A stretch of DNA of 64,000 bases from a virus. Position 1 is the stretch's first letter. The number at the start of each line of letters is the position of its first letter. The DNA is taken from the IMG/VR virus record IMGVR_UViG_3300007513_000004, positions 1-64,000 of that record. The stretch is one strand, 5' to 3'. This document shows positions 22,682 to 56,310 of this stretch, one piece after another. A program made the translations under genes and the position numbers. A model generated the notes under the pieces. That model searched no databases and had not been told where the DNA came from. It saw only the letters and a list, made by a program, of their open reading frames with translations.

Positions 22682-23458
22682 CTATTGCTTTTCCCAGTTA
22701 ACATCTTTTAATAAAATTCCATCTATCCTAGTGTTGCTAAGTGGTTTGTGCAGCCTGCTCCCTCTATCGTCAATATAGTATGCAGTATTTCCATCCGGCC
22801 TCATATACTTTCTCCAGCCTTTAAATCTATATTCAGTTAGATCGCCAGTCTGTGCTTGGGGAGGACTTTCCTCTACCGGCTTTAAGTCATCAGGTAGTCT
22901 CTGTATGAGGTTATCATAACCTGGCCTTCCCTTTTTTATAGAAACAGTCTTCGTGGCGTTTCCCGCTGAATCAAAGAAGCTTGTATTTATCTTTCCTGAG
23001 GTTATTAAAAACTTTGGGCCACCTTTCTCTGGAGGCACATAAACATACTTATAAGGATCTCCAGCTGTATTTATATAATACTCTTCGCCTAAACCATATC
23101 GTCGCAAAACCTTTGCCGTATAAGAACTTGGGCCTATTGCCGTCTTAATCATTCTATAGTTTCTATCTGCTGCCAACTTTTTCCCAGCCTGGAGTCTATT
23201 CTGCGTTTGGGTAATACACTTGTTGTATTGAGGAGGGCCCTTTGTAAGACCCTTGGCTGCACAATGATCTTCTTCCTTTGTCGTATAGGAGGTTGAACCT
23301 TCGCCAAGGTTTGGACTCATACAGCCGTTTAAATCATTGTTCCAGACCATTGGTGGCTTACAATATGCGCTCTTTATTATTGCATCTAAATAGTCAGCTT
23401 CTTTTGTTAAGCCTTTGCTATCCAGATGTGTTGCCAATTTAATTAATTCATTAATCAT
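22682..23458 (-). CDS. Protein with N-terminal LIKLA-type module
   Basis: 258 residues. Residues 1-32 (ELIKLATHLDSKGLTKEADY LDAIIK) are a strong copy of the module, ending KSAY. The body has CKPPMVWNNDLNGCMSPN and later FKGWRKYMRPDGNTAYYIDD. Unrecognised body. RBS AGGAG seven nt upstream. Confidence 0.75.
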   Translation of the reverse strand: MINELIKLATHLDSKGLTKEADYLDAIIKSAYCKPPMVWNNDLNGCMSPNLGEGSTSYTTKEEDHCAAKGLTKGPPQYNKCITQTQNRLQAGKKLAADRNYRMIKTAIGPSSYTAKVLRRYGLGEEYYINTAGDPYKYVYVPPEKGGPKFLITSGKINTSFFDSAGNATKTVSIKKGRPGYDNLIQRLPDDLKPVEESPPQAQTGDLTEYRFKGWRKYMRPDGNTAYYIDDRGSRLHKPLSNTRIDGILLKDVNWEKQ

Positions 23459-26398: not shown

Positions 26399-26417
26399 TA
26401 TACATCTGGATGTATTT

Positions 26418-26446
26418 TTCATTTTTAATTTTGCATCGACTACTTC
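26418..26446 (+). promoter_or_regulatory. Phage-type promoter
   Basis: TTCATT -35, 17-bp spacer containing TTTTGCATCGAC, TACTTC -10. Precedes the 26500 gene by about 50 nt. Confidence 0.55.
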
Positions 26447-26499
26447 ATTTCGTAGGGCACAATGTCCTGCACCAACCAATGAGAAAAGGAAAAGATAAA

Positions 26500-27003
26500 A
26501 TGAGCGACAAGACTGCAATTTTTGAGAATGATAACACTGAGTCTCCTCTCCAGGTGATTCGTCAGACTATGAGCGTTTCGCTGTCCGATGGCGGCGCGGC
26601 CCAGGTTTCTTTTGCCACTAATCGTGGTAAGGGTTCCGGTGCCCAGGTTCTTGCTGTCGATGACTTTGCCGAGGTTGTGAGTACTCTCCAGGGTTACTCT
26701 GATGCTGGTATCGAAGAGCGTGAGGAAGAGCAGCTTTCTCCTGCTGATACGATTCGTCGTACCATCCGTATTGAGGATGGTGTGGTCAGCTTCCGTACCC
26801 GTTCGGGTAAGGGCGCGAAGCCTGCTAAGATTCCTGCGAGTCAGTTCGCGGAAGTCTGCGAGCTTCTGTCTGGTACTCTGTCTGCGGTGGAGGCTGCTGG
26901 TCAGTCTCTTTCTCCGGCTGATGAGACTGCTGATGAAGCAGCCGAAGAGCCTGCTATGGACGGAGACTACTCCGACTATGAGGACATGGGTGACGACGAG
27001 TAA
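26500..27003 (+). CDS. Duplicated-domain protein, copy 1 of three paralogues
   Basis: 167 residues. Two related halves: IRQTMSVSL...VSFATNRGKGSGAQVL and IRRTIRIEDGVVSFRTRSGK, each with a basic glycine/lysine loop (RGKGSG, SGKGAK), and a long acidic tail. Near-identical in plan to 34530-34934 and 37888-38328. GC-rich, biased codons versus neighbours suggest high expression. The basic loops plus acidic tail could fit a nucleic-acid-binding protein; unknown. Confidence 0.8.
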   Translation: MSDKTAIFENDNTESPLQVIRQTMSVSLSDGGAAQVSFATNRGKGSGAQVLAVDDFAEVVSTLQGYSDAGIEEREEEQLSPADTIRRTIRIEDGVVSFRTRSGKGAKPAKIPASQFAEVCELLSGTLSAVEAAGQSLSPADETADEAAEEPAMDGDYSDYEDMGDDE

Positions 27004-27020
27004 TTAATACTCTGAAACGA

Positions 27021-27060
27021 AAAAGCCCACCCGGTTTAACTTCCGGGTGGGCACTCGTTT
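27021..27060. terminator. Bidirectional-looking terminator
   Basis: GCCCACCCGG-TTTAACTT-CCGGGTGGGC stem (27025-27052) flanked by A-rich and T-rich stretches after the 27003 stop. Confidence 0.75.
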
Positions 27061-27070
27061 AATCTATATG

Positions 27071-27274
27071 TCAAACTTTTGCACGAGGATATGTTGTGCC
27101 GTCGTCTGCCTTATTCCAATTACCGCCTTCTCTTCTGGCTAATTGTGCTGGAGTTAACCTGTGTTCAGGAATGTCTTTTTCTCTATCTGCCCAACTGCGA
27201 GAAGACCCCACCGGTTTGTCCCAATCGAGAAAAAGACATTCCATCACCGATAGGTCCTGGAGCAGTTTCTTCAA
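27071..27274 (-). CDS. C-terminal part of a frameshifted LIKLA-module protein (possible)
   Basis: 67 codons in the +1 frame relative to 27183-27452. The segment DWDKPVGSSRSWADREKDIP continues to a natural-looking C-terminus ending RAKV. It probably continues the upstream protein through a +1 shift near 27235 at a run of T (minus strand TTTTT), or is a separate coupled gene. Confidence 0.5.
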   Translation of the reverse strand: MKKLLQDLSVMECLFLDWDKPVGSSRSWADREKDIPEHRLTPAQLARREGGNWNKADDGTTYPRAKV

Positions 27275-27452
27275 CCTCGCCCTCAGCCCCTACAAGCCAA
27301 CCAGGACCTTCGGCCCCTTCTACTGGGTTTCCATCAATATCTAATGGAATTCCTCCAGCAAATTTAAAAATTACTTTATCAATAACATCAGCTTCTTTCA
27401 CAAGGCCTCTGCTATCTAGTTCGCTGGCTAATTTAATTAATTCTACAATCAT
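27183..27452 (-). CDS. LIKLA-module protein, N-terminal part
   Basis: 89 residues. ELIKLASELDSRGLVKEADV is a clear module, then IDKVIFKFAGG and a proline/glycine/glutamate-rich linker. The frame ends soon after it enters the overlap with 27071-27274, suggesting +1 frameshifting or an indel. Confidence 0.6.
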   Translation of the reverse strand: MIVELIKLASELDSRGLVKEADVIDKVIFKFAGGIPLDIDGNPVEGAEGPGWLVGAEGEVEETAPGPIGDGMSFSRLGQTGGVFSQLGR

Positions 27453-27571
27453 TATAGTCTCACGATATTAATTAAAATAATTAATAGAACTTTAAAGCTC
27501 TCGATAAAACTCTCTATAGAACAAAATTTCTTTGATTAATCTTTTAAAATTACTGGTAGAAATCTTTTTCA

Positions 27572-27754
27572 TCAATCGACTTCTTTACCAAGAGTTAACT
27601 TAACTAATTGAGCTGCATTTTGCTTCAAAGTTCTAAGACCCTTTCTGGCCCTGGTTCCTGCCGCAGCATTACCAGCAGCATTCTTTGAAACATCAGTTTC
27701 TAAACTTGCAACCAACTCTTTAATCTCTTCCCATTTACTTTCTACTGTAGCCAT
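27572..27754 (-). CDS. Histone H1/HC1-like DNA-binding protein
   Basis: 60 residues. WEEIKELVASLETDVSKNAA followed by AGTRARKGLRTLKQNAAQLVK follows the HC1-like pattern (alanine-rich helix, AGTRxRK). Likely a nucleoid-associated protein that coats or compacts DNA. Ideal RBS AGGAGG. Confidence 0.7.
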   Translation of the reverse strand: MATVESKWEEIKELVASLETDVSKNAAGNAAAGTRARKGLRTLKQNAAQLVKLTLGKEVD

Positions 27755-27806
27755 AACTACCTCCTTTGTTTTTTATTATACTATTTGTCAAACTTTTGCC
27801 CAAGGG

Positions 27807-28208
27807 CTACCTGTGGCCCCAGTAAGATTGCGAAGCCTGATTTGGCTCAATAATCCTTACTGTAGTTTGATCATGCCAACATTGACATTCTTCATCATAC
27901 TCTGGGCCGGAGATTTTCTTAATCAAAATCCCATCATCCCTTACTCCTAAAGAGAAATAGTGAGTGGCATTAAACCCAACCTCAAACCATTCCACGGCAT
28001 CGCCACTGAAAGGATCTTTATAAGAATAAGGCCCTGTGGGATCGGAAGAGCAAGAGATAAGCCACTCCTTAATATTGTCGGGACAAAGATTTAGAGCCGC
28101 CTCGGTAGCCGCCCTTCTTTCTGCCCTATATTCCCGATCTCGCTGCTTTGCTGCAATCTCATCTCTGTCGAAATGCCAATCGGGAATCGATGCGAGATCA
28201 TCAATCAT
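27807..28208 (-). CDS. Unknown protein
   Basis: 133 residues from MIDDLASIPDWHFDRDEIAAK; ATG chosen by GGAAG six nt upstream. Charged helix (KQRDREYRAERRAATEAAL), then GDAVEWFEVGFNATHYFSLG. Unknown. Confidence 0.6.
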   Translation of the reverse strand: MIDDLASIPDWHFDRDEIAAKQRDREYRAERRAATEAALNLCPDNIKEWLISCSSDPTGPYSYKDPFSGDAVEWFEVGFNATHYFSLGVRDDGILIKKISGPEYDEECQCWHDQTTVRIIEPNQASQSYWGHR

Positions 28209-28428
28209 GGTTATCTTCCTGTTCTTCCGTAAAGGTTTCAATATTTTCTACAGTTGTGTAAAAGCCTTCCTCGTCATCAATCTGATAACTCATAGAAACA
28301 GCTTTAGATTGATTATGATATCTAACGGCATAATCAATATGCCCCCACTCTGGGAGGTTGGTTATAAAATTATGACCACTATAAAATCTTTCGCCCCAGG
28401 GGACGCCACCACGTTCAATTACAAACAT
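28201..28428 (-). CDS. Small unknown protein
   Basis: 75 residues from MFVIERGGVPWGERFYSGHN; starts in a TAATG overlap, GGAGG upstream. Unknown. Confidence 0.6.
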   Translation of the reverse strand: MFVIERGGVPWGERFYSGHNFITNLPEWGHIDYAVRYHNQSKAVSMSYQIDDEEGFYTTVENIETFTEEQEDNHD

Positions 28429-28682
28429 TATTCCATAACCTCCGCGTCGTAAACTTTGATCCATTGTTTTTGCTTTTGCGAAAAAGCAAGCGATTGACGA
28501 GAAATATGATTAATTAATTCTTCCCGCTTTTGTGCCTGCGAGCGTCGGATAGGCTCTTCCATCATTAATTCAAAACGAGCCTTGGCTACGCCATAATCCT
28601 TTCCGCTTGACCACCCCATAATATTTCCTGCCAAGTATGCCAAAATTCCAACACAACTAATGACAATTATTTCTGCAATCAT
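28428..28682 (-). CDS. Small membrane-anchored protein
   Basis: 84 residues; N-terminal membrane helix (IIVISCVGILAYLAGNIMGW) then a charged helix (RRSQAQKREELINHIS). RBS GGAGG. Coupled to both neighbours. Confidence 0.6.
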   Translation of the reverse strand: MIAEIIVISCVGILAYLAGNIMGWSSGKDYGVAKARFELMMEEPIRRSQAQKREELINHISRQSLAFSQKQKQWIKVYDAEVME

Positions 28683-28837
28683 TATTCGGCCCTCCGATAA
28701 TTATTAAAACAATATCCTGCCAAAACTGTGCATAACAATGCAAAGCCCCAGCTGTGGGCAGTAAACGCTTGCCATGCAAATACAGTATTTAGAATTGCGC
28801 AAAACAAGCTGACTCTTCGAGAACTTAAAAAATCCAT
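28682..28837 (-). CDS. Small membrane protein (51 aa)
   Basis: MDFLSSRRVSLFCAILNTVF with two hydrophobic segments (9-26, 31-44); ideal RBS AGGAG and a TAATG overlap with the next gene. Confidence 0.6.
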   Translation of the reverse strand: MDFLSSRRVSLFCAILNTVFAWQAFTAHSWGFALLCTVLAGYCFNNYRRAE

Positions 28838-28855
28838 AGTATTCTCCTATATGTA

Positions 28856-28932
28856 TGGCACGCCCGATAGGATTCGAACCTATGACCCTCGGCTTAGAAG
28901 GCCGATGCTCTATCCAACTGAGCTACGGGCGC
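28856..28932 (-). tRNA. tRNA-Arg (anticodon TCT)
   Basis: Acceptor GCGCCCG/CGGGCGT with one G-U, T-arm ATAGGTTCGAATCCTAT, anticodon loop CTTCTAA, CCA encoded. Reads AGA codons. Confidence 0.95.
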
Positions 28933-28936
28933 TCAA

Positions 28937-29125
28937 TTAAAATTGATGCTCGCCTTCATCTGAATCAACAATCACTCCGCCGTCTCTTAAGGCGATGATT
29001 AAAGTAAGCATAGTATTTTCAATAAAGGTAAGTCTTTCATCAAACGAAGTAACCTGTTCAACCATTAATCTGCATTGGTTCGTAAGCCTCTGCACTTGCT
29101 CTTCCCATAAATCTCTAGTATCCAT
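28937..29125 (-). CDS. Small coiled-coil protein
   Basis: 62 residues, helical with acidic tail; TAATG coupling to the upstream gene. Similar design to 8842-9027. Unknown. Confidence 0.55.
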   Translation of the reverse strand: MDTRDLWEEQVQRLTNQCRLMVEQVTSFDERLTFIENTMLTLIIALRDGGVIVDSDEGEHQF

Positions 29126-29349
29126 TATTCTGACTCTATATCTTTTGGTGCTGTTAACATTATAACACCTAGAAAGTCTAAAATGTCATCCAGCATGGCT
29201 ATTTTTTCTTTCACGCCTTCTTGGTCGCTAGAAAATTCTAAGTCTCTTATAAAAGATAGCAACGCATTATATTGCGCTTCAACTTCTGCGGAATCTTTGA
29301 AAACCTTAATTTGGCTCTTCAACGACTCTATCGTCAGAACTATCTCCAT
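29125..29349 (-). CDS. Small acidic helical protein
   Basis: 74 residues, helical (IESLKSQIKVFKDSAEVEAQ). Overlaps both neighbours. Unknown. Confidence 0.55.
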   Translation of the reverse strand: MEIVLTIESLKSQIKVFKDSAEVEAQYNALLSFIRDLEFSSDQEGVKEKIAMLDDILDFLGVIMLTAPKDIESE

Positions 29350-29857
29350 TACCCTCTTCTTTTATAATTTTCTGAAGTTGACCCATCAGAGCTTCTCCCC
29401 AAGCATCTTCTGTTTCTTGGGACGCCTGATAGTCTTCACTATAATACTCATCTTCTGTAATATAACCTGCATGACGTATAACTTCTCCATCCGGAGGTGA
29501 TAAATAGGTATCACAATCCATGTGCAAGTGCGCGGTCCAACGGTCCTTGGGCAGCGTCATACTCCCAGAGAGGGGAACCAACTCTCGGCATCCTTCCTCT
29601 TTTACAAAGAAGAATTCATCTTCTTGCAAGCCAACACTATCTGCGCCATGCAAGTCCTTGTGCCAACTCGGCTCATAATAAACCTGATGAATCTTGCCGG
29701 GAAAAGCCGTAGGTCCATCATAAAAATATGATGCAACAGTTGGCATAGCCTCCCACCACTCTTTCAGTTCTTCGGCAGACATTTCGGGAATCCAAACCCA
29801 ATGTCTATATCCGTATTCTTCTTCAAGAAGGACGACAATTTCTTCGGCCAAGCTCAT
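29306..29857 (-). CDS. Unknown acidic protein
   Basis: 183 residues; RBS GAGG six nt upstream. Contains SAEELKEWWEAMPTVASYFY and a highly acidic C-terminus. Unknown. Confidence 0.65.
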   Translation of the reverse strand: MSLAEEIVVLLEEEYGYRHWVWIPEMSAEELKEWWEAMPTVASYFYDGPTAFPGKIHQVYYEPSWHKDLHGADSVGLQEDEFFFVKEEGCRELVPLSGSMTLPKDRWTAHLHMDCDTYLSPPDGEVIRHAGYITEDEYYSEDYQASQETEDAWGEALMGQLQKIIKEEGNGDSSDDRVVEEPN

Positions 29858-29874
29858 TCCACACCTCAGTTTTG

Positions 29875-30078
29875 TTACTTGATAACTGATGATAAAACAG
29901 TATTAATTTTTTCTTGAAGATCATAGTTAAGTTTGATCTCAAGAATATTATTAATTTTCTTGCCTGCCTTTTCCAGCAAGCCCTTGGGTGTCTGCACACC
30001 CGCGCATGTGTTACAAGGGTCAACCTCGCCACATAACTCACAGGCTCCTTGGCCTGGATATACCGTTGTTCTATTCAT
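29875..30078 (-). CDS. Small cysteine-rich protein
   Basis: 67 residues; CELCGEVDPCNTC gives two CxxC pairs for zinc. RBS AGGAAGG. Unknown. Confidence 0.6.
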   Translation of the reverse strand: MNRTTVYPGQGACELCGEVDPCNTCAGVQTPKGLLEKAGKKINNILEIKLNYDLQEKINTVLSSVIK

Positions 30079-30089
30079 TGTCCTTCCTA

Positions 30090-30242
30090 TTAACTATCAA
30101 TTCTAATGCGTGCGCGCACGGGTTCTCTGTCATCATCCTGCACGGTACTCGTTATCCTTTCCATGCTATTGGCAATAGAAAAGAGGGGAAAACTTAAAGC
30201 CATTACCCCAAGGCAGGCTACTATATAAAAAAGAAACTCCAT
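30090..30242 (-). CDS. Small membrane protein (50 aa)
   Basis: MEFLFYIVACLGVMALSFPL is a membrane helix, then a basic C-terminus (REPVRARIRIDS). GGAG upstream. Confidence 0.5.
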   Translation of the reverse strand: MEFLFYIVACLGVMALSFPLFSIANSMERITSTVQDDDREPVRARIRIDS

Positions 30243-30259
30243 GTAAAACTCCATAATGT

Positions 30260-31387
30260 TTATTCATAATCCCTGACGGCAATTCCGACAGGGAATCTTG
30301 GACGACCATCGTCCGTTAACTCTTGATACCTGACTGTCAAGTATTTTCCAATATAATCATCTAAATTTTTATAGATTACTGCGCGTTCTTCATGACTTCC
30401 GCGTGGACGCACACTAAACTCAAGTCCATCGGAAGTGGTACAGCGATATACGACAAGACCAGCTTCCCGACCGGAACCGTCCTCTCCACCAATAATCTTA
30501 AACTCATCATCAACAAATCTCTTTACCTTTTGCAAATCATATGAACGATGCTTGTACTTGTACGCACTCGCTTGGTTGCGCACCATCATGCCCTCATAGC
30601 CTTGCTGAACAAACATGCTTTCATACATATCAAACTCTGCTTGGTCAACAACATCATATGTTGATATGATTTTAATATTCTTTCCAATGATGGTCCACCC
30701 CTGACAATAATGTGGAAACATTGTTGAGCCAACTCCTTTTTGCGGCAACCTACACTCAAATGCGAGAGAAGGGTGTGGGGAATCATAGATATGATATTCA
30801 AGCAAATCTGTATCATCCCTCTTCTTCTTGACGGCAGCAATGATTCTTTGGAACGTCCACCCATGCACGTACAACTCTCCATCCGTGCATTGCCCGTTCG
30901 CGAGCATGGCACAAAGCTGTGCATTAATCTTATCGGGGATATCAATAACCTTTCCCTTGCGCGACCACATAGTTACAACACCATCGTCTTTGCGTGCGAG
31001 CATACGCACTCCATCCAGCTTAGGCTGAACAAGACAGGGAAAGTTAATCTTCGCGCTATGCTTGTCATACCTGTGCGCGAGCATAGGTAGGAACAATCCT
31101 TCTGACGTAGTAGGAATCTTATCCTTATCCTCTACATATCCTGAATCCTTTTTACGGCTATGTGCAGATTGAGCTTCAGAACATGCCTGTTCGTAGACAG
31201 AGGTTTCGTTTGCTCTACCGAGATTCTTGCCCTCTCCAACATAGCGTTGGTCAAGTTGTTTCTTGCCGTCCTCATAGCCATGTTCAGTTTCGATGTAACA
31301 GGAGCCGTCACCCATCTTGAGAACCGAGATATTCCACTCTTTAATCTTTCCATTGGTGGACTTTCCATATAGTGTAGGTAGATTCAT
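30260..31387 (-). CDS. ATP-dependent DNA ligase
   Basis: 375 residues. Motif I is QPKLDGVRML with the lysine adenylation site at about residue 115; DGELYVHG (motif III), EGMMVRN (IV) and LQKVKRF (V) follow in order, then an OB-fold C-terminus (DDEFKIIGGEDGSGREAG). Seals nicks during phage replication and recombination. N-terminal 100 residues are divergent. RBS AAGGAAA. Confidence 0.92.
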   Translation of the reverse strand: MNLPTLYGKSTNGKIKEWNISVLKMGDGSCYIETEHGYEDGKKQLDQRYVGEGKNLGRANETSVYEQACSEAQSAHSRKKDSGYVEDKDKIPTTSEGLFLPMLAHRYDKHSAKINFPCLVQPKLDGVRMLARKDDGVVTMWSRKGKVIDIPDKINAQLCAMLANGQCTDGELYVHGWTFQRIIAAVKKKRDDTDLLEYHIYDSPHPSLAFECRLPQKGVGSTMFPHYCQGWTIIGKNIKIISTYDVVDQAEFDMYESMFVQQGYEGMMVRNQASAYKYKHRSYDLQKVKRFVDDEFKIIGGEDGSGREAGLVVYRCTTSDGLEFSVRPRGSHEERAVIYKNLDDYIGKYLTVRYQELTDDGRPRFPVGIAVRDYE

Positions 31388-31396
31388 AATATTTCC

Positions 31397-31687
31397 TTAC
31401 AAGCATCCGTCTTTGCGGGCTGTTTCGTATAGATAGTTTGCCGAGGTTGCAAGAAAATCCTCTTGCTTGTGCCACCTATCTCGTTCTCTTTCCCAAACAG
31501 GTTGGGAAACCTTGCCTTGTTTGTAATCTTGAACAGTCAAGCTAAAATCTTTGCCGGAGACATCTCTGAGATTTTGAACATTCAGAATATCCTCAAGTAC
31601 GGGCGTGCATCTTGCCTCAAACTGTTCTTGAGTTTCCTGACTGGAGCATCCCAAGCAAAGAAATAACAATGGTATATATTTTAACAT
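31397..31687 (-). CDS. Putative lipoprotein
   Basis: 96 residues. Signal peptide MLKYIPLLFLCLGC with a lipobox (L-C-L-G-C) suggests lipid attachment at Cys14. The body is helical. Could be an outer-membrane-facing spanin or entry-exclusion protein, but no partner is recognised. Confidence 0.65.
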   Translation of the reverse strand: MLKYIPLLFLCLGCSSQETQEQFEARCTPVLEDILNVQNLRDVSGKDFSLTVQDYKQGKVSQPVWERERDRWHKQEDFLATSANYLYETARKDGCL

Positions 31688-31902
31688 TATGCTTCCGCCA
31701 TGTCTGCAAAGGATAACGCAACTTCGCTCATGTATACGTCCGTACCTTCTTTGGAGATTTGAACAAGAGGCTCTCCATCAACCATCCTGATATCAACAAA
31801 GCCCTTTTTATATAAACTCAATAGAGTTTTATCAAAGGCCACCTCGTCTGATGGGCCACTTTTAATCTTGTTTTCCATATATTCAATAACATCCTTACTC
31901 AT
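31687..31902 (-). CDS. Small unknown protein
   Basis: 71 residues from MSKDVIEYMENKIKSG; GAGGAGG six nt upstream decides the start. Unknown. Confidence 0.55.
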   Translation of the reverse strand: MSKDVIEYMENKIKSGPSDEVAFDKTLLSLYKKGFVDIRMVDGEPLVQISKEGTDVYMSEVALSFADMAEA

Positions 31903-32482
31903 CTTCATCCTCCTCATAGTATTCTTCTGTGTTTTCAAAAGTTAGGCAACCCTCTTCCCAAACAGCTTCTCCCCGAAAGCCCATACCCGGTTCATCATAT
32001 TGCAAATGAAAGGCAAGGCTGGGCCAATCTTCTGCCACCTTCTCAAAAAACTCCATAGGCGGCCCCCATGCTGTAGTAAAACTATACTGCAAATCGTTAT
32101 CTTCGGAAACATCTAAAGAACTATCGCAGCCTCCCCATTTACAACCCCAATGTGTTCCTTCCCATTTGTATCCACCATACGGGCGAATCTGACCAACAAG
32201 CTCTCCAAGTTCAACAGCTCTTGTGTCATCATAAGGAAAGCATCTAAAGTCTTCCGGCACAGGGTAAAGAGCGTGAAACGAAAGGTCCACAGTGTCTCCC
32301 GGCTCTGGAGGAGAAGATACCATAGACTGCAACCTAATATCATCATGCAAAGGCCAGCTCTCACCACTATGAGGAGAAAAGCTATTGTACGACTGTGTTG
32401 GTCCCCGCGCTTTTACGCGAAACCTTTTGATATCCTTCTCTGGACCTGTAATATACAATGAGTTCATACACCAATTAGGCAT
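31895..32482 (-). CDS. Api92-like (DUF1281-type ferredoxin-like) protein
   Basis: 195 residues. Starts MPNWCMNSLYITGP and has GTHWGCKWGG, FTTAWGPPMEFFEKVA and FHLQYDEPGMGFRGE, the ordered signatures of the Api92/YubB family carried by phages and plasmids. Function unknown. Confidence 0.85.
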   Translation of the reverse strand: MPNWCMNSLYITGPEKDIKRFRVKARGPTQSYNSFSPHSGESWPLHDDIRLQSMVSSPPEPGDTVDLSFHALYPVPEDFRCFPYDDTRAVELGELVGQIRPYGGYKWEGTHWGCKWGGCDSSLDVSEDNDLQYSFTTAWGPPMEFFEKVAEDWPSLAFHLQYDEPGMGFRGEAVWEEGCLTFENTEEYYEEDEDE

Positions 32483-32483
32483 T

Positions 32484-32657
32484 TTATTCCTCGTCTGTTA
32501 GGTTGTTTCCAATCTCTTTAGCTTTACTTACAGTTGCTTCAATGCCTGCATCCACCGAGGCCTTTACGCTTGCAAGGCTTTTCGGATTATTTGTTGCCCA
32601 ATAAAGCAATCCATATACCCCAATACATACTAATGCGATTCTAAATAATTGTTTCAT
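32484..32657 (-). CDS. Small membrane protein (57 aa)
   Basis: MKQLFRIALVCIGVYGLLYW then a hydrophilic tail; ideal RBS AGGAG. One membrane helix. Confidence 0.6.
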   Translation of the reverse strand: MKQLFRIALVCIGVYGLLYWATNNPKSLASVKASVDAGIEATVSKAKEIGNNLTDEE

Positions 32658-32665
32658 AAGCTCTC

Positions 32666-33055
32666 CTATTCAAGTTCTTGAAGTTTCTCCTCAAACAATG
32701 CACAGTGGCTATCGCATGGTCCAAGCTGCACACCTTCTTTGCACGCATACGTGGACCCCTCAAGCTCTTCTCCCATGATAAACGCACCATGCTCGCAGTC
32801 CATACAAATTTGTGAAGAAGGCCAAGTATTTATTGTAACAGAATCTCCATCATCCCAAATGTCATCTTGGGCAAAAACATTACAACTTTCGTGCTTATCT
32901 CTCAATTCTTGTATTAGTTCAAGCCTTCTTCTTAGCGCATCGTAATGATTGCTTGTGGGAGCAAGCCCTTCCTCAACATCCTTTAGCAAGGCTGAGACAT
33001 GATGAGACAACATCGTGTATTGCCATTCAAGGTCTAATTTATAAATATCTTTCAT
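32666..33055 (-). CDS. Unknown protein with C-terminal cysteines
   Basis: 129 residues; helical N-terminus (ALRRRLELIQELRDKHESC) and CMDCEHGAFIM plus later Cys pairs. TAATG coupling. Possibly a small zinc protein. Confidence 0.6.
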   Translation of the reverse strand: MKDIYKLDLEWQYTMLSHHVSALLKDVEEGLAPTSNHYDALRRRLELIQELRDKHESCNVFAQDDIWDDGDSVTINTWPSSQICMDCEHGAFIMGEELEGSTYACKEGVQLGPCDSHCALFEEKLQELE

Positions 33056-33267
33056 TACCACAACCTACCATTGTTATAATCTGCGCCACAGTCCTTACAG
33101 TAAACATCTTCATAGTTGCCCCCACAATTCTTATGTGGGCAGCAATCTACGTGCATAAGATAAATGCCTCCGCTAACAGCTCTGTCGCGAGTATACTCTT
33201 CTGTCTCAAAGACATTATCAAAACATACGCCGCAAGTGCCGATAGCAGCTTTAGCTTCACTCTTCAT
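33055..33267 (-). CDS. Small zinc-ribbon-like protein
   Basis: 70 residues with CGVC, CCPHKNCGG and CKDCG clusters typical of a zinc ribbon. ATG at 33267 follows GGAG. Unknown target. Confidence 0.6.
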   Translation of the reverse strand: MKSEAKAAIGTCGVCFDNVFETEEYTRDRAVSGGIYLMHVDCCPHKNCGGNYEDVYCKDCGADYNNGRLW

Positions 33268-33505
33268 TCCACTTTCTCCATGCCTCAAGCTGTGGGTCAT
33301 CATCCTCTCCCCAACGCTGATTTAGCCCTTGTTCAAGAAACAAACCTTCTTGGTCCAATGCCCAAGCAATAGCTGCTTCCGAAGTTAGAATGTTACTATC
33401 ATCAAGAAAATCAAGAATATCTTTATCATCCCAACACTCGTCCACAGACGTACACGTACCTCTGCCTACCTTTGGATGACTACGAATTGCGTCTACTCTG
33501 TGCAT
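33257..33505 (-). CDS. Small unknown phage-type protein
   Basis: 82 residues from MHRVDAIRSHPKVGRGTCTS; GGGAG six nt upstream. The pattern RSHPKVGRGTCxSVDEC recurs in phage proteins of unknown function. Confidence 0.6.
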   Translation of the reverse strand: MHRVDAIRSHPKVGRGTCTSVDECWDDKDILDFLDDSNILTSEAAIAWALDQEGLFLEQGLNQRWGEDDDPQLEAWRKWNEE

Positions 33506-33506
33506 C

Positions 33507-33698
33507 TTATTCTCCCGCCTCTTCACTTGTTGCCAAGTCGTGCCCAATTTTGTGCAAAACTTTTACAATTGTTTCTATGGTTTCTTTATCTTCCAAGTCT
33601 AACCCTGTATACATAGCCTCTGAGTATAGAATATCCCAAACAGCTTTCTCTAAACCTTCAGAAAGGTCCACCTGTTTGCTCAACATTGGTGAGGTCAT
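33507..33698 (-). CDS. Small unknown protein
   Basis: 63 residues, helical (DKETIETIVKVLHKIGHDLA). Unknown. Confidence 0.55.
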   Translation of the reverse strand: MTSPMLSKQVDLSEGLEKAVWDILYSEAMYTGLDLEDKETIETIVKVLHKIGHDLATSEEAGE

Positions 33699-33702
33699 AA
33701 CT

Positions 33703-33957
33703 CTACCCTTCCTCTTTCCAGCGGTCAGTCTTTGAGAAAATCATTGTTGCTTCTTTCGCATCCTCACGCGCAAGTGCATCCTCTGAACGCTTACTGCCAG
33801 AAAGAGCCTTATCTTTGTGATACATGGTTCTACGAGAAGTGTTTACATCCTTTTGAGAAGCATAACGAAGGCGAGTAATCTCCCCACCATCTGATAGATA
33901 CTGCTCAACCATAGCGTTTAGTTCATCGTTAGAAATTCTTTTTGTATCGTCTGACAT
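33703..33957 (-). CDS. Small unknown protein
   Basis: 84 residues from MSDDTKRISNDELNAMVEQY; GGAG six nt upstream. Charged helical C-terminus. Unknown. Confidence 0.55.
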   Translation of the reverse strand: MSDDTKRISNDELNAMVEQYLSDGGEITRLRYASQKDVNTSRRTMYHKDKALSGSKRSEDALAREDAKEATMIFSKTDRWKEEG

Positions 33958-33991
33958 TGTATTCTCCAATATGTAATGTAAAATGTAATCA

Positions 33992-34015
33992 CCGGGGTTG
34001 AAAGGTCAACCCCGG
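33992..34015 (-). terminator. Terminator-like hairpin
   Basis: CCGGGGTTGA-AAGG-TCAACCCCGG, a 10-bp perfect stem, just past the 34025 stop on the minus strand. Confidence 0.6.
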
Positions 34016-34024
34016 CGAAGATGA

Positions 34025-34285
34025 TTAGAAGATTGAAATGGAAGGTCCGTTGCTTTTCTTTGCAGTCCTAACAGACTTCTTCTTTTCAGGCTTTTCAGTT
34101 ACAAAGTCTGACCTTGAACAGCCTCCTGCAATAGCAGACCTTTGAAGCTCACTCCAGAGAGAGACTGGAGCAACAGTGTTTGCTCCGGGGTAAAGCCCTC
34201 CGTTGCCAGATACTCCAACCCAATAGTTGCCTTTCTTTGTCTTACAGTAACGGTATTTGTTTCCGTCAAAAATAGCCTCAATCAC
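34025..34285 (-). CDS. Unknown basic protein
   Basis: 86 residues. GTG at 34285 selected because CGGAGG is six nt upstream. Middle contains KKGNYWVGVSGNGGLYPGAN; C-terminus is lysine-rich (EKPEKKKSVRTAKKSNG). Unknown. Confidence 0.6.
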   Translation of the reverse strand: MIEAIFDGNKYRYCKTKKGNYWVGVSGNGGLYPGANTVAPVSLWSELQRSAIAGGCSRSDFVTEKPEKKKSVRTAKKSNGPSISIF

Positions 34286-34331
34286 AATAAACCTCCGGTT
34301 TACCCCACGTTGAATCAAGGGGGTTCACAAT

Positions 34332-34360
34332 GAGGTATTCGATGCAAAAACCGTGCCAAA
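34332..34360 (-). promoter_or_regulatory. Promoter region with sigma-54-like overlap
   Basis: On the minus strand TTTTTGCATCGAA leads to TACCTC, matching the phage promoter layout; the same stretch reads TTGGCACGGTTTTTGCA, a good sigma-54 -24/-12 match. Drives the 34285 gene. Confidence 0.5.
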
Positions 34361-34387
34361 TAATATTTGAGGACAGTTTGTGGTATT

Positions 34388-34441
34388 TGTTAAACTTTTG
34401 CCCGGGGATTATTTGATTTCTGTTTTATCATCGACTACTTT
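34388..34441 (+). promoter_or_regulatory. Phage-type promoter with boundary motif
   Basis: TGTTAAACTTTTGCCC (34388-34403), then TTGATT -35 (34413), spacer TCTGTTTTATCATCGAC and TACTTT -10 (34436-34441). Upstream of 34530. Confidence 0.65.
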
Positions 34442-34529
34442 GTATCACAAGGGGTTGAGCCCTTGACCCGCCATCGGGAAGGTGGAGAGCAGCCTCGCTG
34501 GTGTCGGGGCAAACACAAATGGAGTTGTA

Positions 34530-34934
34530 ATGAACATTTTTGGAAATGACAACGAGAGTCCCGCCGCCATTCTTCGTCAGACGATGAGCGTCAGCCTTAC
34601 TGATGACGGTATTCCGGTGGTTTCTTTCGCCACTAACCGTGGCAAGGGTAGCGGTTCGCAGGTGATTCCGGTTGCCGAGTTTTCCGAGTACGTTTCGACG
34701 TTGGAAGACATTTTGGAGTCCGGTATCCCCGAGGATGCTGATGAGGATTTGTCGGCAGGAGAGATGGTGCGTCGTACCATTCGTCAGGATGACGGTGTTA
34801 TCTCCTTCCGCGTGCGTGGAGGAAAGGGTGCAAAGCCCGCCAAGGTCAGCACTGATAACTTCGCAGAAGTTGTCGAGCTTCTTCGGTCCACGGTCGATGC
34901 GGTTGAAGGAGCCTGTGAGTCGCTGACAAAGTAG
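34530..34934 (+). CDS. Duplicated-domain protein, copy 2
   Basis: 134 residues from MNIFGNDNESPAAILRQTMS. Same two-repeat plan as 26500-27003 (VSFATNRGKGSGSQVI and VISFRVRGGKGAKPAK) but lacks the long acidic tail. RBS GGAG. Paralogue; unknown function. Confidence 0.8.
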   Translation: MNIFGNDNESPAAILRQTMSVSLTDDGIPVVSFATNRGKGSGSQVIPVAEFSEYVSTLEDILESGIPEDADEDLSAGEMVRRTIRQDDGVISFRVRGGKGAKPAKVSTDNFAEVVELLRSTVDAVEGACESLTK

Positions 34935-34996
34935 CGTACACACGCATGCACAATGTACGCACAATGCGTGCGTGTGCGCGAAGTCCCCTCCGCGCA

Positions 34997-35034
34997 GGGT
35001 AGCGTCGTTAATAGCGGCGCTACCCACTCTTTTA
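34997..35034 (+). terminator. Rho-independent terminator
   Basis: GGGTAGCG (34997) pairs with CGCTACCC (35018) followed by ACTCTTTT. Ends the 34530 transcript. Confidence 0.7.
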
Positions 35035-35069
35035 ACCTATATGTCAAACTTTTGCCCAGAGGGCAATGG

Positions 35070-35399
35070 TTAGCCAGTCAAAAGATTGATAAAGATATAA
35101 TAATGAAAGATACTTACGGCGAAATAGGCAACAAGTAAAATTCCAATACCCAATTGAGATAACCTGTTGTAAAGAAATTTATTTAATAAATAAATACTTG
35201 GCAAAGATAAAGTTAACTTTGTTATAACAAAGTTAAGCAATGACTTTTCAATTGGGCCGGACAAAACCGGATTAAGTTCTGGAATGTCATAACATGCAAA
35301 CCACACGATAGTCGCAATTAAATCAAACAACACCAGCATCAAAAGTAATTTGGTATGCCGTTGTTTAAAAAAACTTACATATCGCGCATTAGGTGTCAT
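35070..35399 (-). CDS. DUF5658-like membrane protein
   Basis: 109 residues, three to four hydrophobic helices. LLLMLVLFDLIATIVWF and IPELNPVLSGPIE match the pattern of DUF5658-like small membrane proteins (Glu-Leu-Asn-Pro). Unknown role. Confidence 0.65.
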   Translation of the reverse strand: MTPNARYVSFFKQRHTKLLLMLVLFDLIATIVWFACYDIPELNPVLSGPIEKSLLNFVITKLTLSLPSIYLLNKFLYNRLSQLGIGILLVAYFAVSIFHYYIFINLLTG

Positions 35400-35426
35400 A
35401 TCACATTACTACCGTTAACTATCCAT

Positions 35427-35528
35427 TTATTCAAACATGTTCCAAACTTCATAAGCCAAACATGTGCCAGCAAGAATCCATAGTGACGATAAAACGCCAG
35501 AGCCAGCAATAATCAATAATGAGTCCAT
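35427..35528 (-). CDS. Tiny membrane protein (33 aa)
   Basis: MDSLLIIAGSGVLSSLWILA then a short tail; AAGGAGG five nt upstream and a promoter at 35570. Real despite its length. Confidence 0.55.
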   Translation of the reverse strand: MDSLLIIAGSGVLSSLWILAGTCLAYEVWNMFE

Positions 35529-35569
35529 CAAAACCTCCTTCGTCAAGGGCAGTCGTCGCCCTCTAACCC

Positions 35570-35598
35570 TATGTAGTCGGTGTAAATTTCTTGACAAA
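35570..35598 (-). promoter_or_regulatory. Phage-type promoter
   Basis: Minus strand TTTACACCGAC leads to TACATA -10 (35575-35570); upstream the boundary motif at about 35627. Drives the 33-aa gene. Confidence 0.45.
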
Positions 35599-35660
35599 AA
35601 ACTTGTAATTACTTTACAAATTGATTTGTAAAACTTTTGCCCAGAACTGGACATTAAAAA

Positions 35661-35689
35661 TCGAATTCTATTTTATCATCGGCTATTTT
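35661..35689 (+). promoter_or_regulatory. Phage-type promoter
   Basis: TCGAAT -35, spacer with TTTTATCATCGGC, TATTTT -10 (35684). Directly upstream of a noncoding transcript candidate. Confidence 0.55.
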
Positions 35690-35694
35690 AGAGT

Positions 35695-35866
35695 GAAGGA
35701 AAAACGAAGGCAATGCAAAGAGGCAACCAGAATGGCCGTCACGAATCATATCTGATATCCAATTAGTGTTAGAATAGATATATTCAAAGAGCGGGCTGTC
35801 AAGCGGTTACTTTACCGAAAGCGGCGCTACTGTTTAGTCCTTGAGTACCGGGGAAACTCGGTACTC
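35695..35866 (+). ncRNA. Candidate small RNA (about 170 nt)
   Basis: Bounded by a phage-type promoter at 35661-35689 and the terminator hairpin GAGTACCG-N8-CGGTACTC at 35843-35866. Only a 17-codon reading frame lies inside. Likely an untranslated RNA. Confidence 0.45.
35843..35866 (+). terminator. Rho-independent-type hairpin
   Basis: Perfect 8-bp stem with a GGGAAACT loop, followed by ATTTATCTTT. Confidence 0.6.
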
Positions 35867-35899
35867 ATTTATCTTTATTGTAAATTTTTTGCCCGAAGG

Positions 35900-35940
35900 G
35901 AAAACCCCGAAGGCACCTAGTACCTTCGGGGTTGAGTTTA
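35900..35940. terminator. Second terminator-like hairpin
   Basis: CCCCGAAGG (35905) pairs with CCTTCGGGG (35923), flanked by AAAA and TTGAGTTTA; may stop minus-strand transcripts from the GP88-like gene. Confidence 0.5.
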
Positions 35941-36047
35941 ATGCCATTGGCATGACCCGCTCACGGGTGAATTATCGGAATGTTTCTGTTTCCAGCCGCT
36001 TGACCCGTTGCAACGGCGCGGCATCTTGTTTATAGTAACCTCCTCGA

Positions 36048-36680
36048 TTAGTGTTTGTGATAGTCGACGTTTGATACCTTGGGGTTCCAACAAGCCCGGC
36101 ACGATCCGCACTTGCCGTCTTGCTTAAGAGCGGGGCAACCATGGCCCATACCCGCATCAATCGTACTCGTAGGCAGGTCGGTGCGCGGCGGCTTGCCACC
36201 TATCATCGTAGCCGATAGCCGGATGACAAGGTTAACGGGCCATGCTGCTACCCGTGCGAACGCTTCCCGGATCATCTTACCTTCACGAGACGGTGCCCAG
36301 AACTCTGCCCATGGTAGGCGTTCGGCTACCTCTACCCACATCAGAACATGATCGACGCTCTGAAAGTCACCGCTATCATGGATACGGAAGTATGGATCGT
36401 CCGGGTTAGTGTAGTGACCGATTAGCTTAACCATACCATCGGTCCATAGTGGATGGGTCAAAGCCTGATAGCGGCGCTCGTGCCCTAACTTGACGTTCGG
36501 GTACATGTAGTTATTTTTCATGGCGTAGCAGTTGCTACAACTTGATCCCTCTATCCCGGCAAGGATACTGCCCAGGATACAGCGTGTTGCACTTAGTGCG
36601 GTGCTGAACCCTGGCATCTTGCTCGGCTTACCTAATCCGCTACGATGCCCGGTTATCTCTTTCGCTTGTTTTAGATTCAT
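36048..36680 (-). CDS. GP88-like phage protein
   Basis: 210 residues from MNLKQAKEITGHRSGLGKPS; SKMPGFSTALSATRCILG and SCSNCYAMKNNYMYPNV match the phage gene product 88 family with a CxxC motif, then PYFRIHDSGDFQSVDH. C-terminal Cys cluster (CPALKQDGKCGSCRAC). Suggests a metal-cluster protein, but function is unestablished. RBS GAAGGGA. Confidence 0.8.
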   Translation of the reverse strand: MNLKQAKEITGHRSGLGKPSKMPGFSTALSATRCILGSILAGIEGSSCSNCYAMKNNYMYPNVKLGHERRYQALTHPLWTDGMVKLIGHYTNPDDPYFRIHDSGDFQSVDHVLMWVEVAERLPWAEFWAPSREGKMIREAFARVAAWPVNLVIRLSATMIGGKPPRTDLPTSTIDAGMGHGCPALKQDGKCGSCRACWNPKVSNVDYHKH

Positions 36681-36739
36681 TGTGTTCCCTTCAATGATTT
36701 GATTTGGTATTGTCAGTATTACCGCCACGTCATCTACTG

Positions 36740-37505
36740 TCTACAAGTTTTTCAAAAAAGTTTATAATCCCGCTCGGCGCACCCGTCTGGCCCGGTTTAC
36801 ACCGTCGCCCCGTTGATACCGTAGCGGTACTGAATAATATCGGACCCTGCATATTGGGTGAGCATATAATGAAAGGGGTGAGCATTAGCACGTCTGCCCA
36901 CTTACCTGTGACCACCAAACATATTTATATATGTATGATGTACGCACACGGGTGAGTAACACCCTGCACAGGCTTTCTCCCTGTTCTTGTCCTTTGGAGA
37001 CGCTGAACAGCAAGCAATACTTCTGACCGACATTCTGTGCTCAAGTTGGTAAGCTGTACACTTCCCCCGCTTGTTACACGTTATCATTCAACCTCATGGT
37101 AAGGTATCCTAATAACCCCTTTCGGGACGACAAAATCGTTGCCGACTTTGCCAGAGAGACTTCTGCCTTCAGAAGTTAAGTTCTATCAGATTTCTCCGAT
37201 TTACCATGACTCTTTAGTCAGTGCCCTTATCCCGTTTCCACGATGAACCTACAAGTCCGCAGATACCCTCGGCTGCACTTCCACAGTAGTATGTGGACTC
37301 ATGCCTTAGATTACTGAATGATATTCAAGGCCACTACACCTCTTAACTCATTCCCCCTCACAGCCAAGCGGCAGGTCCATATGAATAGCACCCTTCTTGG
37401 GCGGGGTTCTCTCTATCTCCGAAGAGTGCAGGAGCCGGTAACTCCACCTGCATTTAAAGACCCAAGAACGGGGGTCAGTTTAAGTTTTCAAAGAACTTTC
37501 GCTCT
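36740..37505 (-). ncRNA. Large structured noncoding RNA candidate (GOLLD/ROOL-like class)
   Basis: About 765 nt without a plausible gene, starting just after a phage promoter at 37511-37539 and running on the minus strand. Contains many perfect hairpins: ACTTCTG-CCTT-CAGAAGT (37159-37176), TGACT-CTTT-AGTCA (37207-37220), TCCACA-GTAGTA-TGTGGA (near 37271) and a GNRA-type CCCGAAAGGG on the RNA strand near 37120. Size and phage setting fit ornate large RNAs such as GOLLD or ROOL, but I cannot run a covariance search. Confidence 0.6.
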
Positions 37506-37510
37506 GTCAT

Positions 37511-37539
37511 AACATAGTTGATGTTAAAACAGAATCCAA
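37511..37539 (-). promoter_or_regulatory. Promoter of the large noncoding RNA
   Basis: Minus strand TTGGAT -35, spacer TCTGTTTTAACATCAAC (17), TATGTT -10; best match to the module consensus. Confidence 0.65.
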
Positions 37540-37587
37540 AAATTTTCGGGGAAAAGATTTACATAAATGTAAAAGTTTTGCCCCGAT

Positions 37588-37620
37588 GAGTTTATCATAC
37601 GCGTCTGCGCAGATAAACTC
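37588..37620 (-). terminator. Hairpin downstream of 37631 gene
   Basis: GAGTTTATC (37588) and GATAAACTC (37612) form a 9-bp stem just after the 37631 stop. Confidence 0.5.
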
Positions 37621-37630
37621 AAAGGGAATT

Positions 37631-37825
37631 TTAGAGGTTTTTCCAACTCCAAGGTTCGCCGTCCAGCTTTCGCTGAAGTCGAATTCTGAAGCCCAAAGCC
37701 TTATGCCCCGTCAACGGAGTCAATAACTCAATGGCATACTTGACCTCGTCCTCGGTTGCTTTTCGCAAAAGAGCATCGCGGGCAAAGCCATAAACGAATT
37801 TCCGGTGTTCTGGATTGTCAGGCAT
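37631..37825 (-). CDS. Small unknown protein
   Basis: 64 residues, basic; RBS GAGG eight nt upstream. ARDALLRKATEDEVKYAIEL is helical. Unknown. Confidence 0.55.
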   Translation of the reverse strand: MPDNPEHRKFVYGFARDALLRKATEDEVKYAIELLTPLTGHKALGFRIRLQRKLDGEPWSWKNL

Positions 37826-37887
37826 GTGTGTGTCCTCAAGTTAGGTGGCGAGGGCAGCGGGCGGAAAGTCCACCCGCCGCCTTTGTC

Positions 37888-38328
37888 TTACTCTTCGTCG
37901 GGAGAGCCGCCAGCAAGCTGACTACCCGCGTTCTCGACAGCATCAAGAGTGCTGCGGAGAAGTCCCACGACCTCTGCAAATTCACCGACTGGCATCTTGG
38001 CTGGCTTGGCACCCTTACCGGAACGAACCCGGAAGGAAATCACACCTTCGTCAGACTTGATAGTTCGGCGCACCGTTTCAGCGGCAGAAAGCAACTCTTG
38101 CTCGGCAGTCTCGGGGATGCCATTATCAACGTAGCTTTCCAATGTTTCAACGTAATCCCGATATTCCTCAACAGGAAGAATCTGGGCACCTGAACCCTTG
38201 CCGCGATTCGTGGCAAAGCTGACGACCGCTTGGCCGTCGTCGTCCAGAGAAACAGCCATTGTCTGACGAATCGTCTGGGCCGGAGACTCATTGTGCTCCG
38301 ATGCAAAAATGTTAGTTTTGTCGCTCAT
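37888..38328 (-). CDS. Duplicated-domain protein, copy 3
   Basis: 146 residues; TIRQTMAVSLDDDGQAVVSF and VISFRVRSGKGAKPAKMPV reproduce the two-repeat plan of the 26.5- and 34.5-kb proteins. GGAG seven nt upstream. Paralogous to both. Confidence 0.8.
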   Translation of the reverse strand: MSDKTNIFASEHNESPAQTIRQTMAVSLDDDGQAVVSFATNRGKGSGAQILPVEEYRDYVETLESYVDNGIPETAEQELLSAAETVRRTIKSDEGVISFRVRSGKGAKPAKMPVGEFAEVVGLLRSTLDAVENAGSQLAGGSPDEE

Positions 38329-38384
38329 TTATTCTACTCCATGCGGCATTTTTGGTTGATAGCTATATTGCTCGCCGCTACTGC

Positions 38385-38413
38385 GATATAGCCGATGCTA
38401 AAATGAAAATCGA
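38385..38413 (-). promoter_or_regulatory. Phage-type promoter (proximal)
   Basis: Minus strand TCGATT -35, TTTTAGCATCGGC spacer core, TATATC -10; 60 nt before 38328. Confidence 0.5.
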
Positions 38414-38451
38414 AAATCTCTATCTCTTTCTCTTTCTTCTCTCTCTGCTAC

Positions 38452-38480
38452 AAAGTAGTTGATGTTAAAATCAAATTGAA
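38452..38480 (-). promoter_or_regulatory. Phage-type promoter (distal)
   Basis: Minus strand TTCAAT -35, spacer TTTTAACATCAAC, TACTTT -10. Boundary motif TGTCAATCTTTTGCCC at 38492 lies between this and the plus-strand promoter at 38517. Confidence 0.55.
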
Positions 38481-38516
38481 AAATTGCCAAATGTCAATCT
38501 TTTGCCCCGTCTGTTT

Positions 38517-41795: not shown

Positions 41796-41830
41796 TGGCA
41801 TAGTTCTTGCTAATGCAAGAATCGTGCCAA
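41796..41830. repeat. TTGGCAC-type palindrome, copy A
   Basis: TGGCAT-N5-TTGC then GCAAG-N4-GTGCCA, an almost perfect dyad. One of five. Each half also matches a sigma-54 -24/-12 element. Confidence 0.6.
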
Positions 41831-49587: not shown

Positions 49588-49639
49588 AAATGAAATGTTA
49601 AAGTTTTGCCCAGCGGTCTGCAATAATCATGCCAAAAAG

Positions 49640-49674
49640 TTGGCACAGTTCTTGCATTAGCAAGAAGCATGCCA
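49640..49674. repeat. TTGGCAC-type palindrome, copy B
   Basis: TTGGCAC-N5-TTGC then GCAAG-N4-ATGCCA; a nearly perfect dyad upstream of a boundary motif at 49684. Confidence 0.65.
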
Positions 49675-50092: not shown

Positions 50093-50128
50093 TTGGCACA
50101 CTTTTTGCTAATGCAAGAAACATGCCAA
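50093..50128. repeat. TTGGCAC-type palindrome, copy C
   Basis: TTGGCACACTTTTTGC facing GCAAGAAACATGCCAA. Confidence 0.65.
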
Positions 50129-50234: not shown

Positions 50235-51176
50235 CTACTTGCGCTGGCCCTCCCCCTTGTCGATGAGGTAGCGCATGACCTTGCCCGCTTCATTCGCGGC
50301 CCGCTGAATCACGGTAGGGTCATCCTTGAGAGCCTTCCGCCAGTTGGCAAGGTAGGCCACATGGTTGTCCATCAAACCCTCTCGCTTGACTCCCAGATAG
50401 GCGCATGTGAACGCCGCGCCAATCTCGGCAACCAACTCCTCGTAAGCATACGCCTCCGAGCCGAAGCCCGTGAACTTGACGATGCCATCCCGGTTGAGTC
50501 GGTCCTTTGCACCTGACCAGTGGGCGTGCTCATGGATGGTAGTGGCCCAAAAATCAGCAACAGTGGTGAAGGCTCCGGCCTCGGGCACCATGATGTAGTC
50601 CTCGCGAGGGGAGTAGAAAGCACGCCCGCCGCCCGTGCGGAAATCCGCGTCGATACCTTTGACAAGTGCAGCCGCCGCCTCATGGCCCACCTTTGGGTCA
50701 ACCTCTGAAATCTCGGCAGACGGTAGGGGGTTCGTCGTTTGCTGGTTGTTGAAAGTGTACGAGCTTCCAAATCCGATGAACTTTGTGGACCCCTTGACCA
50801 AGAGACTCGCGCCACAGGGCTTGCACTTTTTTGCAAATCCACATGGGCGGCCACAACTGTTGCAGGCCAGCTTCGGGAAGAAAATAGGAGTCCCCTTCTC
50901 GCCTTTGCGCACGTAGTTGCCGCTCTTTTGCCACTGGCCAAACCCGGCCCAACGGTTGTCACCAAACTGAACCCCGGCCATCATCAGCATAAAGCCATTG
51001 AAGTTTCCGCCGTAGGCGCGGCCCGTCAGGATGTTGATTGGCATCCCACCAGCAAGGGACCTATCCCACGGCATAATCCAAGGGGTGCCGTCCTCGGGCG
51101 GGTTGTCGAGGGCTTCGATAATCTGCGCGGCTATACGCTCGCACGTCTCTTGAATCTTGTCGTTGGGCTTGCTCAT
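50235..51176 (-). CDS. ArdC-like antirestriction protein
   Basis: 313 residues. N-terminal IAAQIIEALDNPPEDGTPW and MPINILTGRAYGGNFNGFM match the ArdC N-domain; a Cys-rich insert CNSCGRPCGFAKKCKPCG; then TTIHEHAHWSGAKDRLNRDG is the HExxH zincin-like site with YEELVAEIGAAF as third-ligand helix. Protects incoming DNA from host restriction. RBS GGAGG. Confidence 0.92.
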   Translation of the reverse strand: MSKPNDKIQETCERIAAQIIEALDNPPEDGTPWIMPWDRSLAGGMPINILTGRAYGGNFNGFMLMMAGVQFGDNRWAGFGQWQKSGNYVRKGEKGTPIFFPKLACNSCGRPCGFAKKCKPCGASLLVKGSTKFIGFGSSYTFNNQQTTNPLPSAEISEVDPKVGHEAAAALVKGIDADFRTGGGRAFYSPREDYIMVPEAGAFTTVADFWATTIHEHAHWSGAKDRLNRDGIVKFTGFGSEAYAYEELVAEIGAAFTCAYLGVKREGLMDNHVAYLANWRKALKDDPTVIQRAANEAGKVMRYLIDKGEGQRK

Positions 51177-52394: not shown

Positions 52395-52431
52395 TTGGCA
52401 CGCGTCTTGCTATATGCACAAAGCATGCCAA
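52395..52431. repeat. TTGGCAC-type palindrome, copy E
   Basis: TTGGCACGCGTCTTGC facing GCACAAAGCATGCCAA, imperfect centre. Confidence 0.6.
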
Positions 52432-53780: not shown

Positions 53781-53792
53781 TATTCTCTTCCC

Positions 53793-55474: not shown

Positions 55475-55480
55475 TTAAGA

Positions 55481-56217: not shown

Positions 56218-56310
56218 ATTCTTCTAACCTTACACAGTTTGATGTTATATTAATATTTTCAAAAACTTACAAGATGGTCATGAAGACTGTCGATACAAAG
56301 GAGCCGTAAT

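What the first reader, a model, noticed from the sequence alone, without database searches (positions are those of the whole stretch)
26500..38328. Three paralogous duplicated-domain proteins with GC-rich, biased codons
Copies at 26500-27003, 34530-34934 and 37888-38328 all contain two related repeats with basic glycine loops (RGKGSG, SGKGAK). Each has its own phage-type promoter, and the DNA is much more GC-rich than the genome background, a sign of strong expression or transfer. The family is not recognised.
Basis: partly seen in the sequence, partly recalled or inferred. Interest (0 to 1): 0.72.

Follow-up and report, generated by a model that had tools for sequence, protein, structure and literature searches.

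The report
Three strongly expressed PUR-like phage proteins
A group of very large uncultured phages keeps the same small protein at three separate places in its genome, with signs of very strong expression, and the protein's predicted shape resembles human Pur-alpha, which grips and melts single-stranded DNA and RNA.

Summary
Copies at 26500-27003(+), 34530-34934(+) and 37888-38328(-) are intact paralogs (59-66% identical), each an internal duplication. No sequence library recognises them. All three have lineage-specific promoter motifs (27 such sites in the window, none in two other 20-kb stretches of the same record), and each ranks first of 99 window genes for the family's own codon bias. 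High GC is real (54% vs 42%) but not extreme, and recent transfer is not supported: all five known records over 100 kb carry three copies, in corresponding positions. In two of these phages the three copies resemble each other more than their positional counterparts, so copies appear to be homogenised within a lineage. AlphaFold models (pLDDT 73-79) give a repeated a-bbb-a unit. For the compact model the top ten Foldseek PDB hits are all Pur-alpha repeats I-II (best VIA Z 8.3); the open model's single repeats match Pur repeat III and PC4. Most likely these are abundant single-stranded nucleic-acid-binding proteins that work like PUR/PC4 domains, made from a promoter-dense, probably early region. 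They are probably not the replicative SSB: relatives encode a separate SSB-like gene. Binding and function are inferred, not shown.

The parts
26500..27003 (+). copy A: 167-aa two-repeat protein with a long acidic C-terminal tail
   Evidence: conserved N-terminus MSDKT supports the 26500 start over the upstream in-frame ATGs
26412..26449 (+). phage promoter-like motif of copy A (...TTTTGCATCGACTAC...)
   Evidence: score 36.2
27025..27052 (.). 10-bp G+C-rich hairpin just after copy A (terminator-like; listed with its T tail on the - strand)
34530..34934 (+). copy B: 134-aa two-repeat protein without an acidic tail
34407..34444 (+). phage promoter-like motif of copy B
   Evidence: score 44.2
34997..35025 (+). 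13-bp terminator-like hairpin after copy B
37888..38328 (-). copy C: 146-aa two-repeat protein with a short acidic tail
38449..38486 (-). distal phage promoter-like motif of copy C
   Evidence: score 40.4
38382..38419 (-). proximal phage promoter-like motif of copy C
   Evidence: score 34.7

Best explanation
The three genes encode abundant single-stranded nucleic-acid-binding proteins that work like a PUR/PC4-type domain: two copies of a small a-bbb-a repeat pack against each other in one chain, as repeats I and II of Pur-alpha do. The conserved basic Gly loops (NRGKGSG and SGKGAK) would contact the backbone of ssDNA or RNA and destabilise duplexes. They are made in quantity as separate transcription units from lineage-specific promoters in the small-gene (probably early) region. 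Three loci are kept, and in some lineages homogenised, to keep the dose high. Likely role: coating or remodelling phage or host nucleic acids early in infection, next to a separate replicative SSB. Shown: paralogy, repeat, promoter motifs, codon bias, conservation of three loci. Predicted: fold. Inferred: nucleic-acid binding, dose, timing and role.
For: Compact model: Foldseek PDB ranks 1-10 are all Pur-alpha I-II (E 0.003-0.04, probability 0.85-0.99; rank 11 is the Whirly protein PBF-2). VIA: human PURA I-II Z 8.3, 3.3 A over 110 residues, fly Pur-alpha 7.3, then Whirly 4.1-4.7 and MRP1/2 3.9. In the open second model single repeats hit Pur-alpha repeat III (Z 4.3), Borrelia PUR (3.8), PC4 (3.8) and MoSub1 (3.3). 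Many of the residues invariant across 17 homologs lie in the two loops: N41, G43, K44, G45, G47, Q49 and R100, G104, K105, G106, K108, P109, A110. Codon bias; promoters; hairpins soon after the promoter motif in most leaders, mean z -1.6. Three copies in G000, G001, G005, G006, G007, in corresponding positions. [quoted passage not shown]
Against: No sequence-level similarity to PUR (profile-profile probability 0.6%, within shuffled controls) and no PF04845 or PF11680 match. No Foldseek hit reaches E 0.001, and the tool's note says best Z values of 7-8 are common for models without clear relatives. The model with higher pLDDT is open (pTM 0.41) and its top Foldseek hits are PAXX, E 0.04. Each repeat shows three strands plus an N-terminal helix, not the four strands of the PC4 fold. 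The proteins are net acidic (-10, -11 and -21 here).
Confidence: 0.5

Rival explanations
1. They are the phage's main replicative single-stranded DNA-binding protein, as proposed for the PC4-like protein of phage T5.
For: Predicted PC4/PUR-like fold, abundance signature, acidic tails on two of three copies; no PF00436 SSB in six records.
Against: Relatives G001, G005, G006 and G007 carry another protein; its G005 and G007 versions match PHROG single-strand DNA binding families (E 1e-9 to 1e-6) and lie next to Pol III alpha, UvsX-like recombinase and RuvC-like genes. The three loci lie in another region, whose promoters are absent from the replication stretches sampled.
Confidence: 0.1
2. They are transcription factors of the PC4 type: they bind melted promoter DNA and activate, or autoregulate, the phage's lineage-specific promoters.
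For: PC4 acts in transcription (PMC9600219); promoter motif and protein family lie in the same region; each phage has its own promoter sequence shared by its copies.
Against: The motif has 27 sites in the window and is not special to these genes. No direct evidence of binding. A sigma-like protein is already encoded (3893-4750).
Confidence: 0.15
3. They act against a host defence, for example by altering DNA topology as the PC4-like anti-CRISPR AcrIIA22 does, or as partly acidic nucleic-acid mimics.
For: Probably early region that includes an anti-restriction protein (50235-51176); AcrIIA22 is a PC4-like nickase (PMC8545432); net acidic proteins.
Against: The conserved positions are mainly Gly, hydrophobic and basic residues, with one invariant acidic residue; no PADLOC match (a library of defence systems, so weak evidence). 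Nothing tests nicking.
Confidence: 0.12
4. The fold match is spurious and the proteins are abundant structural or regulatory proteins that do not bind nucleic acid.
For: Moderate pLDDT, no Foldseek E under 0.001, three-stranded repeats, net acidic charge.
Against: PUR/PC4 folds lead the VIA lists of both models and the Foldseek list of the compact one; the two models share data and method, so this is not independent confirmation.
Confidence: 0.13

Closest known systems
Pur-alpha repeats I-II (eukaryotic PURA; Borrelia PUR-domain protein)
   Same: Two repeats in one chain (as in PURA), best structural match of the compact model over 110 residues
   Different: No detectable sequence similarity; three strands plus an N-terminal helix per repeat instead of four strands; phage-encoded, three loci, acidic tails on two copies
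PC4/Sub1-type ssDNA-binding proteins, including the phage T5 PC4-like protein
   Same: Single repeats of the second model match PC4 and MoSub1; T5 is a precedent for a phage PC4-like protein (PMC8545432)
   Different: Two repeats per chain and three paralogs; a separate SSB-like gene is present in relatives
Whirly / PBF-2 and MRP1/MRP2
   Same: Further structural matches after Pur-alpha (Z 3.9-4.7)
   Different: Clearly weaker match; no sequence similarity found
AcrIIA22 (PC4-like anti-CRISPR nickase)
   Same: Phage/prophage protein reported to have a PC4-like fold
   Different: Single domain without the C-terminal helix; no sequence or structure comparison was made here

Membership tests
PUR domain (Pur-alpha type) | two repeats in one chain that pack into one domain | tested here: met
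   internal repeat P 1.3e-8; compact model aligns with PURA I-II over 110 residues at 3.3 A. Packing is seen in a predicted model only; the second model is open
PUR domain (Pur-alpha type) | b-b-b-b-a topology of each repeat | tested here: not met
   DSSP on both models gives a-b-b-b-a, three strands; a prediction, not a structure. For this reason the proteins are not filed as members
PUR domain (Pur-alpha type) | sequence match to PurA (PF04845) or DUF3276 (PF11680) | tested here: not met
   hhalign with PUR repeats 0.6%
PC4-like proteins | binding of single-stranded nucleic acid / duplex melting | not testable with these tools
   needs purified protein
bacterial OB-fold SSB (PF00436) | SSB profile match | tested here: not met
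   no Pfam SSB match in the proteins and no PF00436 match in six records, controls positive
replicative phage SSB | location with replication genes | tested here: not met
   a different SSB-like gene lies in the replication cluster of G005 and G007; the PUR-like genes lie elsewhere
AcrIIA22-like nickase | nicking of supercoiled DNA and its key Asp | not tested
   no comparison with AcrIIA22 was made

The most novel reading that the evidence does not exclude
A phage lineage uses a tandem-repeat PUR-like protein, kept at three corresponding loci and homogenised by gene conversion, as one of its most strongly expressed early products to coat or melt host and phage nucleic acids: a phage counterpart of Pur-alpha with a variant repeat.
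Probability: 0.3. Interest if true: 0.7.

Novelty: new variant of a known kind. Interest (0 to 1): 0.5.

Why it matters
Phage PC4-like proteins are known, but a two-repeat, PUR-like version kept in three copies would extend the fold and pose a clear dosage question. Three dispersed phage genes that appear to evolve in concert while their neighbours stay put would be an unusual case of selection to keep copies alike. The family also marks a promoter-dense region of an uncultured large-phage lineage; no record in the phage collection searched matches this protein.

Tried and rejected
Sequence libraries (Pfam, PHROGs, NCBIfam, PADLOC), PDB sequences by phmmer and by profile, and tblastn against INPHARED phages found nothing of note. 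A scan of genome contigs found no relative. Direct profile comparison with PUR repeats was negative. Replicative SSB was my leading idea until a separate SSB-like gene was found in the replication cluster of relatives. Horizontal transfer as the cause of high GC was rejected on the conserved positions. Searches for a phage RNA polymerase (PF00940, PF00623) found none; PF00940 and gp32 (PF08804) rang in no control genome, so those two negatives are weak. BFVD Foldseek gave only weak matches to mostly uncharacterised phage proteins, one named Whirly.

Full report
What is there. The window is part of a 223,402-base virus record. The three copies are intact, the only ones in that record, and 59-66% identical in protein. 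Here they are called A (26500-27003, +), B (34530-34934, +) and C (37888-38328, -). A has a long acidic tail, C a short one, B none. Each is an internal duplication; repeat 1 against repeat 2 gives P 1.3e-8.

Expression signs. GC is 54% against 42% for the window, ranks 5, 7 and 9 of 101 genes. Codon choice departs strongly from the rest of the window, and each copy ranks first of 99 by codon adaptation trained on the other two; because the copies are related this is partly shared ancestry. A 38-bp motif, roughly TTTTTcATTTCTgTTTTatCATCrgTTACaTt, precedes each copy, twice for C. It has 27 strong sites in the window, mostly at 32-52 kb, and none in two other 20-kb stretches of the same record. 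Each related phage has a different motif shared by its own copies, and in G005 and G007 that motif is frequent near the family and absent from the replication stretches. So these look like regional promoters, probably early; timing is inferred. Most leaders can form a hairpin soon after the motif (mean z -1.6), individually weak.

Relatives. Eight other IMG/VR records encode the family. All those over 100 kb (G001, G005, G006, G007) have three copies, as G000 has. G003 (88 kb) has two full copies, G004 (47 kb) and G008 (87 kb) one each, and G002 ends inside one. G003, G004 and G008 also have a single-repeat relative. No record in INPHARED matched.

Concerted evolution. Neighbouring genes place the copies in corresponding positions: B lies beside homologs of 34025-34318 and 33703-33969 in G000, G001, G006 and G007. 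Yet in G006 and G007 the three copies group by phage (support 96/93 and 84/84), and holding all A, all B or all C copies together is rejected (p-AU 1.3e-6, 0.0008, 2e-8). In contrast A and B copies of G000 and G001 pair by position (90/85 and 99/97), and C copies did in a first tree (91/82). This fits gene conversion within some lineages. Caveats: the groups were tested after a first tree had been seen, and positions for the G005 copies and for A and C of G006 are less certain than for B.

Fold. Two AlphaFold2 models (6 and 17 sequences; pLDDT 72.9 and 79.3, pTM 0.66 and 0.41) give a-bbb-a twice. The compact one matches Pur-alpha repeats I-II best by Foldseek and VIA; single repeats of the open one match PUR and PC4 domains, but its Foldseek list is led by PAXX. 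The two models share data and method. No sequence similarity to PUR was found. I therefore say it works like a PUR/PC4 protein and do not file it as a member, since four-stranded repeats were not seen.

Role. G005 and G007 have a Pol III alpha gene, and near it a UvsX-like recombinase, RuvC-like nuclease, GroEL and an SSB-like protein, with a primase in G007. The SSB-like gene was also found in G001 and G006 but not in G000, whose record may be incomplete. So the family is probably not the replicative SSB. Binding, strand melting and any counter-defence role remain untested.

Noticed in passing
34343-34358(-), 41796-41829, 49619-49674, 50094-50127, 51298-51466, 52396-52411: Thirteen matches to the sigma-54 promoter consensus TGGCAYRNNNNTTGCW, 0.06 expected, several in facing pairs forming palindromes; the one at 34343 precedes the gene at 34025-34318. 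Also in G001 and G003 loci, none in two other G000 stretches.
   Followed up: partly
25855-51336, 26 sites: Motif GTCAAACTTTTGCCC (GGGCAAAAGTTTGAC on the other strand), 26 matches with up to two mismatches, 0.19 expected, often upstream of the promoter motif or of sigma-54-like sites.
   Followed up: partly
22682-23458, 27183-27452, 53475-61743 (-): About ten proteins share an N-terminal leader like MINELIKLANELDSKGLxKEADYLD; possibly a targeting or cleaved leader.
   Followed up: no
1878-2227 (-): tmRNA gene with tag ANNNYYYEPVALAA, plus nine tRNAs in the window.
   Followed up: no
3893-4750 (-): Sigma-factor-like protein (phrog_351, E 2e-43).
   Followed up: no
L011 3364-3633 (+), also L010 and L022: Single-repeat relative of the family in G003, G004 and G008, possibly like the ancestral unit.
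   Followed up: partly
L047 6669-8315 (-), L048 16039-17676 (+): GroEL-type chaperonin in the replication cluster; the L047 copy matches PHROG groEL at E 2.7e-127.
   Followed up: no
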